A stretch of DNA of 21,637 bases. It comes from a virus. The notes under the pieces are model-generated. The model saw only the letters and a program-made list of their open reading frames with translations, was not told the origin of the DNA and made no database searches. The DNA is taken from positions 1 to 21,637 of the IMG/VR virus record IMGVR_UViG_3300025846_000042, one strand, 5' to 3'. Below, one piece after another: positions 6,327 to 21,613 of this stretch; positions within the stretch are counted from its first letter, which is position 1; every line of letters begins with the position of its first letter. The position numbers were made by a program, and so were the translations under genes.

Positions 6327-7004
6327 TCAAATCACCCCTTTTTTATATTGATATTTTCTCGTTGCCACTAAGTCTGTGGGGCAGCCAAGTTTTAATGCTA
6401 TATCTCTGTTTCTCACCCCGGAGTCAACCAGCCTTTTGAAATAATCCATGTCGATGCCGTATTTGTCCCGTACCGCACTTCCACATCTCCTTCTTATGTC
6501 AAACCTGCGCAGCGTTCCATAAATCACCATTGTCGAAACTCCATATTGTCTCGCAAGTCTTGTTCCGTGTTCCCCTGACTTGTAGGAGGAGATTACGTCG
6601 AGTTCTTGCTCTACGCTAAGTTTTTTATGGTTTCGGCTAAAGAGTTCACTGTGTCGTACATTTTCGGACTGCGTGCACCACTCAAGATTGTTCGTGTTGT
6701 TATTATGTGGATTTTCATCAATGTGATTTACGCAGGGAAGCTTAAGGGGATTTGGAATAAAGGCCGCAGCTACGAGCCTGTGTACTTTGAAATCTTTTCT
6801 TTCTCCTGGCTTCATGAGTTTTATCTTTAAGCAACCCGTTGTAGCCTTTGAAAGCTTAAGATACTTAGGCGTATCCAGTATTATTCTGTCTCCGTGCCCA
6901 TTTCCCCTCGTGAGACTCCGAATTCTGCCCTCGCTTGAAACCTCGTAGTATTCTTCGTACCCTGCTACCGGTTTCCATTTTTCTGTCAAAATTACTTTGT
7001 TCAT
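6327..7004 (-). CDS. NUMOD4/HNH homing endonuclease (225 aa)
   Basis: Site-specific DNA endonuclease, typically a selfish mobile gene. Residues 8-35 (EKWKPVAGYEEYYEVSSEGR) form the NUMOD4 DNA-binding motif. Residues about 73-120 (VHRLVAAAFIPNPL, VNHIDENPHNNNTNNLEWCT) form the HNH_3 nuclease with its His-Asn-His residues. The C-terminal 90 residues hold two helix-turn-helix-like segments that likely read the target. It is inserted between the replication protein gene (overlap at 7001-7004) and ssb (abutting at 6327), and it keeps translational coupling on both sides. It appears intact. Confidence 0.93.
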   Translation of the reverse strand: MNKVILTEKWKPVAGYEEYYEVSSEGRIRSLTRGNGHGDRIILDTPKYLKLSKATTGCLKIKLMKPGERKDFKVHRLVAAAFIPNPLKLPCVNHIDENPHNNNTNNLEWCTQSENVRHSELFSRNHKKLSVEQELDVISSYKSGEHGTRLARQYGVSTMVIYGTLRRFDIRRRCGSAVRDKYGIDMDYFKRLVDSGVRNRDIALKLGCPTDLVATRKYQYKKGVI

Positions 7005-15805: not shown

Positions 15806-16396
15806 ATGTTTAGTCCATACAAAGCATTACTCCAGCGTATGGGGCAACCATATTCAATAGAAAGAGGCGGAATTGCAATTCAGGAATGTAGGGGCCTTCA
15901 AAACCGAGAAACGACTACAAAACGAAGATATGTTGGTTTTCCGGTGGAAACAGATATTAAGCCAAATGATTGGATTATTAACTCAACTGGAGAACGATTA
16001 ATCATCGAAGATACGCATGTAACATACTTCCAGTCCGAACCTTCCGAATTACAAGCTTTTTACTTAACAGAAGTTGAACACAATAATCAAAAGTCTCAAT
16101 ACTCCACTTTTCATATCGAAAATGCTTATGGATCTGTGATTGGGAACCAATCTCACTTCTCTTTGAATTACAGCGCCTCGATCCAACAAATGAACGATCA
16201 AATTGAAAAATCCGACTCACCGGATAAAGATGATCTTAAAAAAATAACCGCACTTCTTGAAATGGTAGTAAATAATCAGGTTCCCGTTTCTAAAGGTCTC
16301 TTTTCAAAATTCTCTGCTGTAATGGAGCGAAACTCTTGGATATCGAGTGCGATAGCATCAACACTTATGGGTTGGATGACAACTCAATTGCATTGA
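15806..16396 (+). CDS. Lysogeny-region protein of unknown function with hydrophobic C-terminus (196 aa)
   Basis: Rightward gene with GGGGGTGATTTTGAA before its ATG. Residues 1-90 (MFSPYKALLQRMGQPYSIER, GFPVETDIKPNDWIINSTGE) resemble a small beta barrel such as a phage head-tail-type or OB-like fold. Residues 105-120 (AYGSVIGNQSHFSLN) are Gly/Asn-rich strands. The C-terminus is an amphipathic helix (ITALLEMVVNNQVPVSKGLF) followed by SSAIASTLMGWMTTQL, which may touch membrane. I believe similar proteins recur in Firmicute mobile elements, but no function is known to me. Its stop region overlaps 32 bases of the convergent small gene. An operator-like palindrome controls its promoter region. Confidence 0.75.
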   Translation: MFSPYKALLQRMGQPYSIERGGIAIQECRGLQNRETTTKRRYVGFPVETDIKPNDWIINSTGERLIIEDTHVTYFQSEPSELQAFYLTEVEHNNQKSQYSTFHIENAYGSVIGNQSHFSLNYSASIQQMNDQIEKSDSPDKDDLKKITALLEMVVNNQVPVSKGLFSKFSAVMERNSWISSAIASTLMGWMTTQLH

Positions 16397-16603: not shown

Positions 16604-16978
16604 ATGAAACTTGATCCTGATTGTGTTCGTGACGTACTTATTGAAATTGAAGTAAAGAGCAAAGTTGGCGATATACTGATGTTTCCGAGTGATTCTGAAT
16701 TGTTGCCAAAGTATGGAAGGGATAAACTGGAATATCATCTTCGTCAATGCGTATGGAATGGGTTCGTTAAAATATACGATGATGGCATTCAGGCAAATGG
16801 TGATTATCAAGTGAAGGACTTAGCGCCGCCGGCTCATGCATTTTTAGCCAACATTCGATCTGATACGATTTGGAAGAAAACGAAAGAGGCGGCGAATAAA
16901 GTTGGGTCGATGTCTCTTGATGTTCTTATCAGAATCGCCGCACAGATAGTTGTCGGATTGATCAAGGGTAATGCCTGA
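16604..16978 (+). CDS. DUF2513-family protein (124 aa)
   Basis: Rightward gene with AAAGGGGG before its ATG. The start MKLDPDCVRDVLIEIE, the central YHLRQCVWNGFVKI and the end HAFLANIRSDTIWKKTKEAA, then VGSMSLDVLIRIAAQIVVGL, match DUF2513, a family common in lysogeny regions of Firmicute prophages. The fold looks like a winged helix with a hydrophobic C-terminal helix. Biochemical function is unknown. It is overlapped at its 3' end by 135 bases of the leftward 17116 gene. Confidence 0.88.
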   Translation: MKLDPDCVRDVLIEIEVKSKVGDILMFPSDSELLPKYGRDKLEYHLRQCVWNGFVKIYDDGIQANGDYQVKDLAPPAHAFLANIRSDTIWKKTKEAANKVGSMSLDVLIRIAAQIVVGLIKGNA

Positions 16979-17239: not shown

Positions 17240-17617
17240 ATGGACAGTTTTGATGAACGCCTAAGAAAGCTGCGAGCAGAAAAAAGACTAAAGCAGCTGG
17301 ATGTTGCAAAAGCGGTTGGAATTAGCATTGGAGCTTACCAACGATATGAGTATGGAGAGCTAAAACCAAAGCAAGGAAACGAAAAAGCAATCGCTGATTT
17401 CTTCAACGTCTCCGTCGAATACCTCCGCGGTGAGACCGACGACCGCGGTGACGGCTTTGAAATCCACGCACATAGAGACCCTACCGTTACTGGCATGGAT
17501 CTGGATCAGGCGCTGGGGTTAGTTACTCAGCTGGAAAAGTTGTCAAAGCTCCATGATGATGGTAAGCTGACAGACGAAGAATATTCCATATTGAAGAGTA
17601 AAATTATTAGAGGGTAA
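17240..17617 (+). CDS. XRE-family lysogeny repressor with SHOCT-like tail (125 aa)
   Basis: Probable master repressor of the prophage. I use ATG 17240, four bases after GGAGGG. Residues 5-65 are a canonical XRE helix-turn-helix (LRKLRAEKRLKQLDVAKAVG, SIGAYQRYEYGELKP, FFNVSVEYLRGETDD). The C-terminus (LEKLSKLHDDGKLTDEEYSI) fits the short SHOCT oligomerisation domain. There is no peptidase domain, so inactivation would be by antirepressor or by ImmA-type cleavage rather than RecA self-cleavage. The divergent leftward promoter and its dyads lie directly upstream. It is followed after four bases by the zinc-ribbon gene. Confidence 0.92.
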   Translation: MDSFDERLRKLRAEKRLKQLDVAKAVGISIGAYQRYEYGELKPKQGNEKAIADFFNVSVEYLRGETDDRGDGFEIHAHRDPTVTGMDLDQALGLVTQLEKLSKLHDDGKLTDEEYSILKSKIIRG

Positions 17618-17621
17618 ATTT

Positions 17622-18128
17622 ATGATTAAGTGCCCCGTATGCCAGACCGAAAATACAGACGATACAAGGTTTTGCAAGGGTTGCGGCATCAAAATATCGG
17701 CTGCTTTAGAAGCAGCTCGCCGGGTCAAACTTAACCCTATTCAGTGCCCTGCTTGCAATTCTGAAAATTCATCAGATACTGTTTTTTGTAAGAAGTGTGG
17801 TTTACAGATAGCAGAAAATATTGAATACAATCCGAGTCACGCGATTGCATTGATCAGATGCCCGAAGTGCGGGAATACAAACCCATCTGGCACAAGGTAT
17901 TGTGGGGTATGCAGCCAGCCGTTGACTCAAGAAGCGGCTGATCAACTACAAAGAAACCAAGTTCCTGCTCGAGCAGTACCAGCGTATAGAAGAACTCATC
18001 CCGCTGTTGTACTGTTGACAATAATTCTTGTAATAATTGCGCTTGCTATTTGGTTACCTACGGTTAGATGTTCAATTCCTTTTACCGTCACAGTTACACC
18101 ATCTGCCGTGACAAGTGGGAACAATTAA
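17622..18128 (+). CDS. Triple zinc-ribbon single-pass membrane protein (168 aa)
   Basis: Starts four bases after the repressor stop with AGAGGG upstream, so it is co-transcribed with the repressor and made in lysogens. Three zinc ribbons follow each other: C4/C7/C18/C21, C42/C45/C56/C59 and C80/C83/C94/C97. A basic linker leads to a transmembrane helix at about 127-146 (VVLLTIILVIIALAIWL) and a 20-residue polar tail rich in Thr/Ser/Val, probably outside. Zinc-ribbon/membrane proteins of this plan are often sensors or adaptors. What it binds is unknown. Its neighbour 18235 is a TerB_N-like protein, so they may work together. Confidence 0.85.
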   Translation: MIKCPVCQTENTDDTRFCKGCGIKISAALEAARRVKLNPIQCPACNSENSSDTVFCKKCGLQIAENIEYNPSHAIALIRCPKCGNTNPSGTRYCGVCSQPLTQEAADQLQRNQVPARAVPAYRRTHPAVVLLTIILVIIALAIWLPTVRCSIPFTVTVTPSAVTSGNN

Positions 18129-18234
18129 TCCGGCTAAAAGTTTTGAGATCACAAACTAGACTGTATTCTATCGACCCACATCCTCTCCAATGAAGAACAA
18201 GCAAAGTTGAAGCAAAGAAACATGGGGTGACGAT

Positions 18235-19686
18235 ATGTTTTCTTTCTGGAAAAGAAAAAGTCCAGAAGCAAGGATGATTGAAGGAGCTACCAACTTTCTT
18301 AAACAAGGAAAGTATGATCACGCATATCGTTTGGTTGCGCTCTGTTGGATAAAAAGCAAGAATCACTCACTCTATGATTGGAAAAGTGCCTATAAAAACG
18401 GTATACCGGAAAAATATATTAAGGCATCTGTTGAATTTATTAGTTCTTCGGCTGAAACAATTTTCTTAGATCCTGCAATAAGGCAACAGATCCCAGATAT
18501 TGACATCTTCTGTCTCGTATCTTTGTATTCAGGAATCAGCCCTAGTGTATTTTGTCAGTTGCTTCATGAGAAATTTCCACAAACAATCACACTCTCACTA
18601 ACAAAATCAGTAGAGGCGTATTTAATAGAAGCGTGGAGCTATTACTCCAAACTCGTAAAAACAGACAAAGCGTTGGAGGGTAAACCAGACAAAAAGGAAT
18701 CCTCGGCGCATGACAAGGATAATGGTCACGATCTCGTGGCAAGCAATTCTTCACATGAAATCCGAGAAGGAATCAATATTCAAGATGTATTTATTAGCGC
18801 AGAAATTTTTCGATTGTTATGGTTTTCCGACGGGAAATATAAAAATTATTTTCCAAAAAAGACAAACGAGGAAGTCAATATTGGCGCGTTTTCAGTCACC
18901 TATACATACCTATCGAGTACTGAACCAAGTGCAATATCAATGAATTCTATCATCACAAAATGCAATATCCAAACTATTCCGATTCCTTCGTACTATCCTT
19001 CATATGAGGGGCTTACTTCACAGCAACGCTGGGTCTATTTGAATTTTTTACACAATCCGTTTACACCTACTGATATCGGGTACATTTTCATTTTTTATTA
19101 CGGTTTAGAACGACATCTTCTGGAAGGTAACTTTGATGAAGCTTTTAATTTTATACTGCGACTTAGGGATGTACACCCAAATAAATCGTTTCAGCAGTAT
19201 TCGGCCAACGCTTTAGTTATGTCTGCAATTTTGAATAATCGTCCAGATAAATTAACAGAATTTTTGCTTTCAATGGATAAAGAATATGAGATGACAATGA
19301 GTTTTAACACTCTTTTAATGGTTAAAGCATTCTCCGGTCAAGGAATAACAGCCGAGGAACTTGTAAAATTTCACAATAATTTTGATTTTACTAACAACAG
19401 ATATATTCGACAATTCCCCGAACTTTTCATTGAACAGTTAAGAAAAGAAATTCTGATTTCATATGATAGAAACTCAATACCAATGGATTTCAACGTGCAT
19501 GAAATGCCTCGGACACGACTTAGTGTGTATGCGAATTATTCTTTTGGAAATAGCTTGGTTTCGGTACCAGATTTCACAAGTCTTCATCAATTAAAGCGCA
19601 ACGCATTTCAAGCATTAAACATGGCTCACGAAAAGCTAAAAGTTGAACTCAGAGAAAAAAGAAAAGATATTGGTTCTGAAACTTAA
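18235..19686 (+). CDS. TerB_N-domain-like cargo protein (483 aa)
   Basis: Large, AT-rich gene unlike the surrounding phage genes in base composition, so probably acquired separately. Residues 1-140 are helical (TPR-like or alpha-solenoid look: FLKQGKYDHAYRLVALCWIK), 140-180 a charged linker. Residues about 245-400 match the TerB N-terminal domain pattern: IPSYYPSYEGLTSQQRWVYL, then TDIGYIFIFYYGLERHLLEG. TerB_N occurs in proteins tied to tellurite and stress-response (Ter) systems and to conflict-related loci. Start at ATG 18235 with GGGGTGA four bases upstream. It lies between repressor and ImmA and ends at its own terminator. A lysogen-expressed stress or anti-phage role is inference. Confidence 0.75.
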   Translation: MFSFWKRKSPEARMIEGATNFLKQGKYDHAYRLVALCWIKSKNHSLYDWKSAYKNGIPEKYIKASVEFISSSAETIFLDPAIRQQIPDIDIFCLVSLYSGISPSVFCQLLHEKFPQTITLSLTKSVEAYLIEAWSYYSKLVKTDKALEGKPDKKESSAHDKDNGHDLVASNSSHEIREGINIQDVFISAEIFRLLWFSDGKYKNYFPKKTNEEVNIGAFSVTYTYLSSTEPSAISMNSIITKCNIQTIPIPSYYPSYEGLTSQQRWVYLNFLHNPFTPTDIGYIFIFYYGLERHLLEGNFDEAFNFILRLRDVHPNKSFQQYSANALVMSAILNNRPDKLTEFLLSMDKEYEMTMSFNTLLMVKAFSGQGITAEELVKFHNNFDFTNNRYIRQFPELFIEQLRKEILISYDRNSIPMDFNVHEMPRTRLSVYANYSFGNSLVSVPDFTSLHQLKRNAFQALNMAHEKLKVELREKRKDIGSET

Positions 19687-19720
19687 CATACTTTTTTCTT
19701 TAAAGTACCACAACAAGGAC

Positions 19721-19756
19721 AGCATCCCCTAACTGACGTTGGAGGGTGCTTTTTTG
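19721..19756 (+). terminator. Rho-independent terminator after the cargo genes
   Basis: AGCATCC / GGGTGCT stem with one G-T pair, extended inside by CTAAC / GTTGG-type pairing around a TGAC loop, followed by TTTTTT. It ends the repressor, zinc-ribbon and TerB_N transcript. Confidence 0.85.
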
Positions 19757-19758
19757 TA

Positions 19759-19841: not shown

Positions 19842-20327
19842 ATGACACCATCTGAAATACTTGAGCAGGAAATGACAGATGTTGGAATGCAAGTAGTCGA
19901 TAGAGCCGTAGGCGGCTACAAGGGGCTTCTTGTTCGCAAGGATGGTCTCTCTTATGTCTTTGTCGATCCGAAGGCCACAAGGCGAGACAGAGCCACCATC
20001 CTGGCAGAAGAGTTCGGGCACTACAAGACAAGTGTCGGTGATACGGTCCGCGGATCAGATGACATCAGGATCCGACGAGCTGAAGAACGAGCCATGCGTG
20101 CTGCAGTCGATATGCTGGTCTGTCCGGAAGATGTTATCCAGGCAATTAAATCAGGTATCCGGAACTGGTACGAACTTTCAGAGGAGTTGGATCTACCTGA
20201 AAGTTTCTTACAGAAAGCAGTTGAGGTCTGGAAGAAGCAGTACGGCCCTGTGTATTGCACAAATGAAAACGGGGATGTGTTGTGGATGGAGCCGCTTTCC
20301 CTTCATGTCTTTGATCCAGAACTCTAA
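19842..20327 (+). CDS. ImmA/IrrE-type metallopeptidase with altered HExxH (161 aa)
   Basis: In Firmicute elements such as ICEBs1, ImmA cleaves the XRE repressor (ImmR) to trigger induction. Here residues 51-64 read ATILAEEFGHYKTS: the zinc motif is EExxH (E56, E57, H60), with Glu in place of the first His. The RRAEERAMRAAVDMLVCP helix carries the third-ligand Glu (E81/E82). The altered motif occurs in part of the family, and activity is uncertain. Length is typical. AGGAGG lies seven bases before the ATG. It is 22 bases upstream of the integrase gene and separated from the repressor by the cargo genes. Confidence 0.88.
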   Translation: MTPSEILEQEMTDVGMQVVDRAVGGYKGLLVRKDGLSYVFVDPKATRRDRATILAEEFGHYKTSVGDTVRGSDDIRIRRAEERAMRAAVDMLVCPEDVIQAIKSGIRNWYELSEELDLPESFLQKAVEVWKKQYGPVYCTNENGDVLWMEPLSLHVFDPEL

Positions 20328-20348: not shown

Positions 20349-21461
20349 ATGGCTAATGCAATTTGGAACGAAAAGGAAAAGCGCTGGGAGTTACGAGTCA
20401 CAAAAGACGGAAAGACTAAAAAATTTACATCAGTAAAATCTGGCCGCCCCGGGAAGCTCGAAGTCAACCGAAAACGGAATAACTGGGAGAGTGGTGAATT
20501 TGATCATGAAAATGCAAGACTGGATAAATGTTGGCAGCTGTTTTTAGACATGATTATCGATCGGAGAGGAAAAGAAAGCGAGACATACGTGCAAAATGAA
20601 ATGTATGGCCGCCTGCATATCCTTCCTATGCTCGGGAAGCATAAAGCCAATTCCATTACCCTAGATGAGTGGCAGCGCGTTATATCGACTGCCAGGCCGA
20701 AGGGCAAAAAGCGTAAAGACAACACGGTATATTATCAAACAAAAGAACTCTCAAAAAAATCGCTCATGAACCTCAAAGGTGCTATTCTTCTCTTCTGCAA
20801 ATTCGCCAAAGCAAGACACATGATTGAAGAAATACCGGATGAATTATATATTCCAGATAATGCCCCGACAATCGGAAAAGAAATCCTGCAGCCTGATCAG
20901 GTCAAGCGATTCCTTGAGCCAAGCGAAGAATGGTATATCAACTGCTTACGCTTTGAGGTTTTTACAGGCTTGCGTCCTGGTGAAGTACTCGGTCTCAAGA
21001 AGGAAGATTATATAGATGGTGTCATTACGATACGCCGGTCCCGGAATAATCGAAATAGGGAGACCACAGGAAAGAATAAAAATGCACGTAGGACAATGGT
21101 TCTGCAGAAACTGGCCAGAATAGAAATAGAACAGCAGCTGGCAAAATCCAAAGACCTCGAATCAGAATGGATCTTCTGTAATCGTTTCGGCGGTCCTGGC
21201 ACCCAGCACGGGGCTTATATGGGATGGCGGAGAATAGCAAAAGAAAGATCACTCTCCGGATCTCCGTATGGGCTGCGTCACACCTTCATCTCATTGTCCA
21301 AACGCAGCCTGTCAAAACAGGATATACAGGATTATGTAGGACACTCGTCCAGCATGGATACTTTCGGGGTCTATGGGCACGAAGTTGACGGCGAAATGCA
21401 GGAGACTGCGAGGATTCTTGACATCACATTTAAGCGACATTTGACACAGAAAAAACAATAA
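20349..21461 (+). CDS. int: Tyrosine-family integrase (370 aa)
   Basis: Catalyses integration and excision at the attachment site. Residues 1-50 are an arm-type DNA-binding domain (MANAIWNEKEKRWELRVTKD), 55-170 the SAM-like core-binding domain, 175-365 the catalytic domain. Catalytic residues are R209 (FTGLRPGE), R310 (PYGLRHTF), H332 (VGHSSS) and the nucleophile Y342 (FGVYGHE). In the second box Tyr307 stands where His is usual in HxxR. TAAGGAGG precedes the ATG. It lies next to the 3' end of tRNA-Gly, the classic position for a phage that integrates in a tRNA gene. Confidence 0.96.
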   Translation: MANAIWNEKEKRWELRVTKDGKTKKFTSVKSGRPGKLEVNRKRNNWESGEFDHENARLDKCWQLFLDMIIDRRGKESETYVQNEMYGRLHILPMLGKHKANSITLDEWQRVISTARPKGKKRKDNTVYYQTKELSKKSLMNLKGAILLFCKFAKARHMIEEIPDELYIPDNAPTIGKEILQPDQVKRFLEPSEEWYINCLRFEVFTGLRPGEVLGLKKEDYIDGVITIRRSRNNRNRETTGKNKNARRTMVLQKLARIEIEQQLAKSKDLESEWIFCNRFGGPGTQHGAYMGWRRIAKERSLSGSPYGLRHTFISLSKRSLSKQDIQDYVGHSSSMDTFGVYGHEVDGEMQETARILDITFKRHLTQKKQ

Positions 21462-21538: not shown

Positions 21539-21613
21539 TGGAGCGGAATACGAGATTCGGACTCGCGACTTTCACCTTGGCAAGGTGACACTCTACCACT
21601 GAGTTAATTCCGC
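21539..21613 (-). tRNA. tRNA-Gly (anticodon GCC)
   Basis: Full cloverleaf on the minus strand: acceptor GCGGAAT / ATTCCGC, D-arm CTCAGTGGTAGAG, anticodon arm CACCT-TGCCAAG-type loop with GCC, T-arm around TTCGAAT, discriminator T and an encoded CCA. It is the likely chromosomal integration site: its 3' end faces the integrase 78 bases away. The attachment core itself cannot be defined because the other prophage end is outside the window. Confidence 0.95.

What the first reader, a model, noticed from the sequence alone, without database searches (positions are those of the whole stretch)
17622..19686. Lysogen cargo: triple zinc-ribbon membrane protein plus TerB_N-like protein, a candidate new defence or stress system
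These genes follow the repressor in the same direction, end at their own terminator and split the repressor from ImmA, so they look like inserted cargo made in the lysogen. The larger gene is AT-rich. TerB_N is linked to Ter stress systems; a membrane-anchored zinc-ribbon adaptor could be its sensor. I know of no described two-gene system of this form.
Basis: partly seen in the sequence, partly recalled or inferred. Interest (0 to 1): 0.7.

Follow-up and report, generated by a model that had tools for sequence, protein, structure and literature searches.

The report
Prophage cargo with Shango-like TerB_N core
A dormant bacterial virus carries, right behind its repressor gene, a swappable cargo pair: a membrane protein with three zinc fingers and a protein built on the core of the Shango anti-virus system; relatives of the second protein sit in the same slot of otherwise unrelated dormant viruses, some fused to a DNA-cutting enzyme, so it is probably a virus-versus-virus defence gene.

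Summary
Between the repressor (17240-17617) and ImmA (19842-20327) lie a triple zinc-ribbon protein with one C-terminal membrane helix (17622-18128) and an AT-rich gene (18235-19686) with a true TerB_N domain (Pfam PF13208, 39.5 bits, cut-off 25). A sibling prophage with the same terminator, ImmA, integrase and tRNA-Gly site carries a different cargo gene in that slot, so it is a cargo-swap site. The terminator belongs to the phage backbone, not to the cargo.

The TerB_N protein is the conserved unit. Its 300-aa core is homologous to the N-terminal half of Shango SngA, but without TerB, TerB_C, SngB or SngC. Across 59 distinct loci, 15 have repressor upstream and integrase downstream, against 0 of 33 SngA-type loci and 2 of 92 control genes, although those repressors and integrases are mostly unrelated. 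Five of 53 relatives carry an Mrr-type nuclease; 15 of 59 carry their own N-terminal membrane helices. Pairing with a zinc-ribbon gene recurs (5 loci) but is not fixed.

Best reading: lysogen-expressed anti-phage cargo on a stand-alone SngA core, a new variant of prophage-encoded defence. No function was shown. A strict two-gene system is not supported.

The parts
17240..17617 (+). Prophage repressor, HTH_3 plus C-terminal SHOCT-like tail; its promoter presumably drives the cargo
   Evidence: Pfam HTH_3 6e-11, SHOCT 4e-6; ATG at 17240 with GGAGG; 67% identical to the repressor of sibling L028
17622..18128 (+). ZnR-TM protein, 168 aa: three CxxC..CxxC zinc ribbons, then one membrane helix and a 22-aa tail
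   Evidence: Pfam DZR/Zn_Ribbon_1, 3 stretches; TM residues 128-146; start 4 bases after the repressor stop
17631..17684 (+). zinc ribbon 1, Cys 4/7/18/21
   Evidence: sequence, Pfam
17745..17798 (+). zinc ribbon 2, Cys 42/45/56/59
   Evidence: sequence, Pfam
17859..17912 (+). zinc ribbon 3, Cys 80/83/94/97
   Evidence: sequence, Pfam
18003..18059 (+). single membrane helix; basic stretch before it suggests ribbons inside the cell
   Evidence: hydropathy; orientation inferred
18235..19686 (+). TerB_N protein, 483 aa
   Evidence: Pfam PF13208; PADLOC SngA 1.9e-11, partial
18235..18768 (+). N-terminal helical extension (residues 1-178), no relative among the genes of the fetched loci, low-confidence model
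   Evidence: phmmer; AF2 pLDDT about 40-75
18772..19665 (+). SngA-like core (residues 180-477), shared by all relatives; mostly helical, repeat-like
   Evidence: AF2 pLDDT 93.9, pTM 0.90
19713..19757 (+). intrinsic terminator of the phage backbone that closes the cargo slot
   Evidence: fold; shared with L028
19842..20327 (+). ImmA-like metalloprotease (right border of the slot)
   Evidence: PHROG 87 3e-18; Pfam Peptidase_M78 0.0036, below cut-off
20349..21461 (+). tyrosine integrase
   Evidence: Pfam Phage_integrase 3e-17
21539..21613 (-). tRNA-Gly(gcc), likely attachment site
   Evidence: ARAGORN; shared in L028

Best explanation
The slot between repressor and terminator is a cargo site, transcribed with the repressor in the lysogen. 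Its present occupants are an anti-phage (superinfection-immunity) cargo. The working part is the TerB_N protein, whose core is the SngA core of Shango without its ATPase and helicase partners. I infer that the core is a helical scaffold or sensor held at the inner face of the membrane: here by the zinc-ribbon membrane protein acting in trans, in many relatives by their own fused membrane helices. It would respond to incoming phage DNA or an early phage protein and pass the signal to an attached effector, which in some relatives is an Mrr-type nuclease and here may be the N-terminal helical domain. Shown: gene order, homology, cargo swap, recurrence in the slot, nuclease fusions, fused anchors. 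Inferred: lysogen expression, interaction of the two proteins, the trigger, and the antiviral outcome.
For: Cargo swap: the sibling L028 has the same repressor C-terminus, terminator, ImmA, integrase and att region but a different gene in the slot. Recurrence: HTH upstream and INT downstream in 15 of 59 core-type loci, 0 of 33 SngA-type loci, 2 of 92 control genes (p 1.5e-5). Among those 15 loci, 69 of 105 repressor pairs have no BLAST match and integrase identity has a median of 25%, so one module recurs in different phages. Defence signs: profile match to SngA over 248 columns, E 1.9e-28; Shango is an experimentally tested anti-phage system (PMC10250203); Mrr_cat fused at E 2e-28 to 5e-27 in L042, L048, L050 and weakly in L015, 5 of 53 in all; Ltp superinfection-exclusion proteins beside the core in L047 and L030. 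Mobility: the core gene is lower in GC than its surroundings in 61 of 64 loci, by 7.4 points on average. Anchoring: own N-terminal membrane helices in 15 of 59; N-terminal zinc ribbons fused in L015, L057 and, with two membrane helices, in L102; zinc-ribbon genes adjacent in the window, L019, L040, L047, L048.
Against: No function was measured. The window protein itself has no recognisable effector domain. Zinc-ribbon adjacency is only weakly enriched (5 of 84 against 7 of 588 genes, p 0.011, window included). Relatives also lie outside the lysogeny slot, e.g. between terminase and portal (L002, L010, L025), so the lysogeny slot is not obligatory. Loci were sampled by similarity search, so counts are not population frequencies.
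Confidence: 0.58

Rival explanations
1. Superinfection exclusion at the envelope: both proteins sit at the membrane and block DNA entry of related phages directly, as Ltp does; no nuclease or cell death is involved.
For: Lysogeny-module location like ltp of TP-J34 (PMC3952083); Ltp-domain neighbours in L047 and L030; the alternative cargo in L028 is a lipoprotein-like gene related (34% over 102 aa) to a membrane protein beside the core in L008; the window protein lacks a nuclease.
Against: The ZnR-TM protein has only about 22 residues outside the predicted helix and no Ltp domain; Mrr fusions in relatives point to DNA as a target.
Confidence: 0.22
2. Lysogeny regulation: the pair modulates the repressor-ImmA switch or prophage stability rather than fighting other phages.
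For: Position between repressor and ImmA; repressor-TerB_N-integrase order recurs.
Against: The sibling L028 lacks both genes and keeps repressor, ImmA and integrase; the core occurs next to unrelated repressors and outside lysogeny modules; fusion to a restriction nuclease does not fit a regulator.
Confidence: 0.1
3. Host-stress (Ter-like) function useful to the lysogen.
For: The TerB_N family name, and a published proposal linking Ter domains to stress and defence (cited in PMC10250203).
Against: No TerB PF05099 domain in the protein and no TerD/TerC-type neighbour among scanned genes; contexts are phage modules, not ter operons.
Confidence: 0.06
4. Unlinked passengers: the zinc-ribbon gene and the TerB_N gene are two independent cargo genes that merely share the slot (compatible with the defence reading of the TerB_N gene).
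For: Exact pair not found elsewhere; most core-type loci have no zinc-ribbon neighbour; 106 bases separate the two genes.
Against: Fusions of zinc ribbon to the core in L015, L057, L102 and adjacent zinc-ribbon genes in four further loci.
Confidence: 0.4

Closest known systems
Shango (SngA-SngB-SngC), PMC10250203
   Same: The core is homologous to the N-terminal half of SngA over about 250 residues; membrane anchors occur in both (22 of 33 SngA-type loci have an N-terminal membrane helix)
   Different: No TerB or TerB_C domain, no ATPase, no helicase; SngB-like gene adjacent in 0 of 59 against 29 of 33; sits in phage lysogeny or packaging slots
Ltp-type superinfection exclusion (PF07553), PMC3952083
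   Same: Lysogeny-module cargo expressed in the prophage; found beside the core in L047 and L030
   Different: No PF07553 domain in the window; no large surface-exposed part
Dionysus (TerB homolog; van den Berg et al. 2025, preprint not held, reported in PMC12926258 and PMC13282480)
   Same: A TerB-related anti-phage gene
   Different: Could not be compared: its sequence and domain make-up were not available; described in P. aeruginosa against jumbo phages
Bunzi (TerB PF05099 component, PMC10952713)
   Same: [quoted passage not shown] that it is a two-gene system is from my own knowledge
   Different: PF05099 is absent here; the window has TerB_N PF13208 instead

Membership tests
Pfam TerB_N (PF13208) | score above the curated cut-off | tested here: met
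   39.5 bits against 25; 52 of 53 relatives also match at E <= 0.001
Shango | SngA with TerB_N, TerB and TerB_C | tested here: not met
   only TerB_N in the window; all three in L005
Shango | SngB ATPase next to SngA | tested here: not met
   absent in the window; 0 of 59 core-type loci
Shango | SngC helicase | tested here: not met
   absent in the window; one of 59 loci (L035) has a helicase, of ResIII/PLD type
Ter stress system | TerB PF05099 and ter-operon partners | tested here: not met
   no PF05099 in the protein, no Ter domains among neighbours scanned
Ltp superinfection exclusion | Lipoprotein_Ltp PF07553 domain | tested here: not met
   Pfam scan of the ZnR-TM protein
Ltp superinfection exclusion | located in the lysogeny module | tested here: met
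Bunzi | TerB PF05099 component | tested here: not met
   Pfam scan of both proteins
Dionysus | sequence relation to the Dionysus TerB protein | not testable with these tools
   preprint and sequence not held; PADLOC-DB copy is from 2023
Prophage-encoded anti-phage defence | protects the lysogen from other phages | not testable with these tools
   needs plaque assays

The most novel reading that the evidence does not exclude
A stand-alone SngA core is the common module of an undescribed, widespread prophage immunity family in which membrane anchors, zinc ribbons and effectors (Mrr nuclease, TPR, Mu-F-like) are swapped around a fixed sensor; Shango would be one elaborated member, and the window a split form with its anchor in trans.
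Probability: 0.4. Interest if true: 0.72.

Novelty: new variant of a known kind. Interest (0 to 1): 0.52.

Why it matters
The molecular role of the TerB_N part of Shango is not explained in the papers read. A one-gene relative that phages carry in their immunity slot, sometimes fused to a nuclease, gives a minimal system in which the sensor and effector roles can be tested apart. It would also add a recurrent cargo family to the known repertoire of prophage defence.

Tried and rejected
Single-sequence scan of viral contigs with the TerB_N protein found nothing; the alignment-based scan was needed. Zinc-ribbon protein: no relatives in viral contigs or phage records. Its NCBIfam match TcaA (36.5 bits against a cut-off of 550) covers only ribbon and membrane helix and was not taken as membership. 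Shango membership rejected (no TerB, TerB_C, SngB, SngC). Ter operon rejected. Fold search of the whole model and of the core alone: no PDB match with E below 1; VIA-align best Z 4.8, to helical-repeat proteins, too weak to name a fold. BFVD: nothing with E below 1. Solved-structure sequence search: nothing useful. The first gene caller missed AT-rich genes and was replaced. Host of the window not identified: 391 genomes of one class gave only a 39% identical integrase, with a repressor directly before it and no cargo. Literature searches found no description of this arrangement.

Full report
What is there. The window is a 21.6-kb IMG/VR virus record whose right end reads repressor (17240-17617), zinc-ribbon membrane protein (17622-18128), TerB_N protein (18235-19686), terminator (19713-19757), ImmA (19842-20327), integrase (20349-21461) and tRNA-Gly (21539-21613, minus strand); the protein genes are all on the plus strand. 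The zinc-ribbon start lies 4 bases after the repressor stop. It holds three CxxC..CxxC ribbons and one hydrophobic helix at residues 128-146 with 22 residues behind it. The TerB_N call is firm: 39.5 bits against a curated cut-off of 25.

It is cargo. One other IMG/VR contig (L028) carries the same integrase at 96% identity. It aligns at 93% from window 19699 to the end and at 89% over a C-terminal part of the repressor gene, but between these it has one different gene, 190 aa, with a lipoprotein-like start and a C-terminal domain 34% identical over 102 aa to a membrane protein next to the TerB_N gene of L008. So the slot from the repressor stop to the terminator is a swap site. The TerB_N gene is 35.8% GC against 45.6% for the rest of the window, and relatives are lower in GC than their surroundings in 61 of 64 loci.

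Relatives. Alignment-based scans found 21 viral loci, 80 genome loci and a few further viral loci such as L120; phage and plasmid records gave a few more. A common core, window residues 180-477, defines the family; residues 1-178 of the window protein have no relative among the genes of these loci. The more distant genome hits (L073-L108) are mostly Shango SngA: an SngB-like gene is adjacent in 29 of 33 of these against 0 of 59 of the core-type loci. Profile comparison joins the two groups over 248 columns, E 1.9e-28, so the shared part is the whole N-terminal half of SngA, not only the short Pfam match. The core model is confident (pLDDT 93.9, pTM 0.90), mostly helical, with only weak matches to helical-repeat proteins.

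Where relatives sit. After removing near-duplicates, 59 core-type loci were compared with controls. A repressor-type gene upstream and an integrase downstream on the same strand are both present in 15, against 0 of 33 SngA-type loci and 2 of 92 other long genes of the same loci (p 1.5e-5). In those 15 loci, 69 of 105 repressor pairs show no BLAST match and integrases have a median identity of 25%, while all TerB_N pairs match. One module has therefore come to occupy the same slot in many mostly unrelated prophages. A second recurrent place is between terminase and portal (L002/L053, L010, L025). In 397 genomes of one bacterial family the core type appears once (the seed genome), while any TerB_N appears in 39; of 20 regions fetched around the latter, only five show a weak core match and four of those have Shango partners. 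The core type is thus sparse in hosts, as expected of mobile cargo.

What it is joined to. Five of 53 relatives carry Mrr_cat, at E 2e-28 to 5e-27 in L042, L048 and L050, which also lie in the repressor-integrase slot. L037 is joined to a Mu-F-like domain, and four relatives match TPR repeats. Fifteen of 59 have their own N-terminal membrane helices. Zinc ribbons are fused at the N-terminus in L015 and L057, and as ribbon plus two membrane helices in the SngA-type L102. Separate zinc-ribbon genes are adjacent in the window, L019, L040, L047 and L048; the L047 gene is ribbon, membrane helix and Ltp repeats. The enrichment over other genes is modest (5 of 84 against 7 of 588, p 0.011 including the window).

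Interpretation. A mobile, AT-rich module in the immunity slot of unrelated phages, homologous to the core of a tested defence system and repeatedly joined to a restriction-type nuclease, is best read as anti-phage cargo made in the lysogen. The recurrent anchors suggest action at the membrane, and the zinc-ribbon protein is a plausible anchor or sensor in trans; this step is inference. Entry exclusion of the Ltp kind is the main rival. Regulation of lysogeny is unlikely, because the sibling does without both genes. A Ter stress role has no specific support. That the two genes are merely neighbours remains possible (about 0.4) and is compatible with the defence reading.

Limits. Loci were chosen by similarity search. 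The Dionysus preprint, the nearest possible precedent, could not be read. No function was measured.

Noticed in passing
L002, L010, L025, L053 (terminase-portal gap): Core-type TerB_N genes also sit between terminase large subunit and portal in several phages, a second recurrent cargo place.
   Followed up: partly
L042:5371-7305, L048:5374-7332, L050:5398-7299: TerB_N core joined to an Mrr-type nuclease (L042 and L048 also with N-terminal membrane helices), between repressor and integrase; striking candidates for a functional test.
   Followed up: yes
L037:3145-4374: TerB_N core fused to a Phage_Mu_F-like domain in a Treponema contig, with a zinc-ribbon gene upstream.
   Followed up: partly
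L030:7730-8518 and L047:7554-8126: Ltp-type superinfection-exclusion genes directly downstream of the TerB_N gene; in L047 with a zinc ribbon and a membrane helix.
   Followed up: partly
L028:5757-6326 and L008:7622-8281: Two membrane or lipoprotein-like cargo proteins share a C-terminal domain (34% over 102 aa); Pfam shows only a weak OB-like (tRNA_anti-like) similarity.
   Followed up: partly
L028:4446-5220: The sibling's immunity region carries further short zinc-ribbon ORFs without an evident membrane helix, so such proteins are common in this phage group.
   Followed up: no
window 15806-16396 and 16604-16978: Two more plus-strand genes left of the repressor (PHROG 21028; DUF2513) in a low-GC stretch that does not align to the sibling: probably more accessory genes.
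   Followed up: no
window 6327-7004: NUMOD4-HNH homing-endonuclease-like gene among the replication genes; part of its DNA resembles HNH genes of Vibrio and Salmonella phages.
   Followed up: no
L064, L066: TerB_N reading frames broken by an apparent frameshift, suggesting decay of the cargo in some hosts or assembly errors.
   Followed up: no
L045, L054, L063, L092: Relatives in methanogenic archaea (Methanogenium, Methanomicrobiaceae, Methanobrevibacter, Methanocorpusculum).
   Followed up: no
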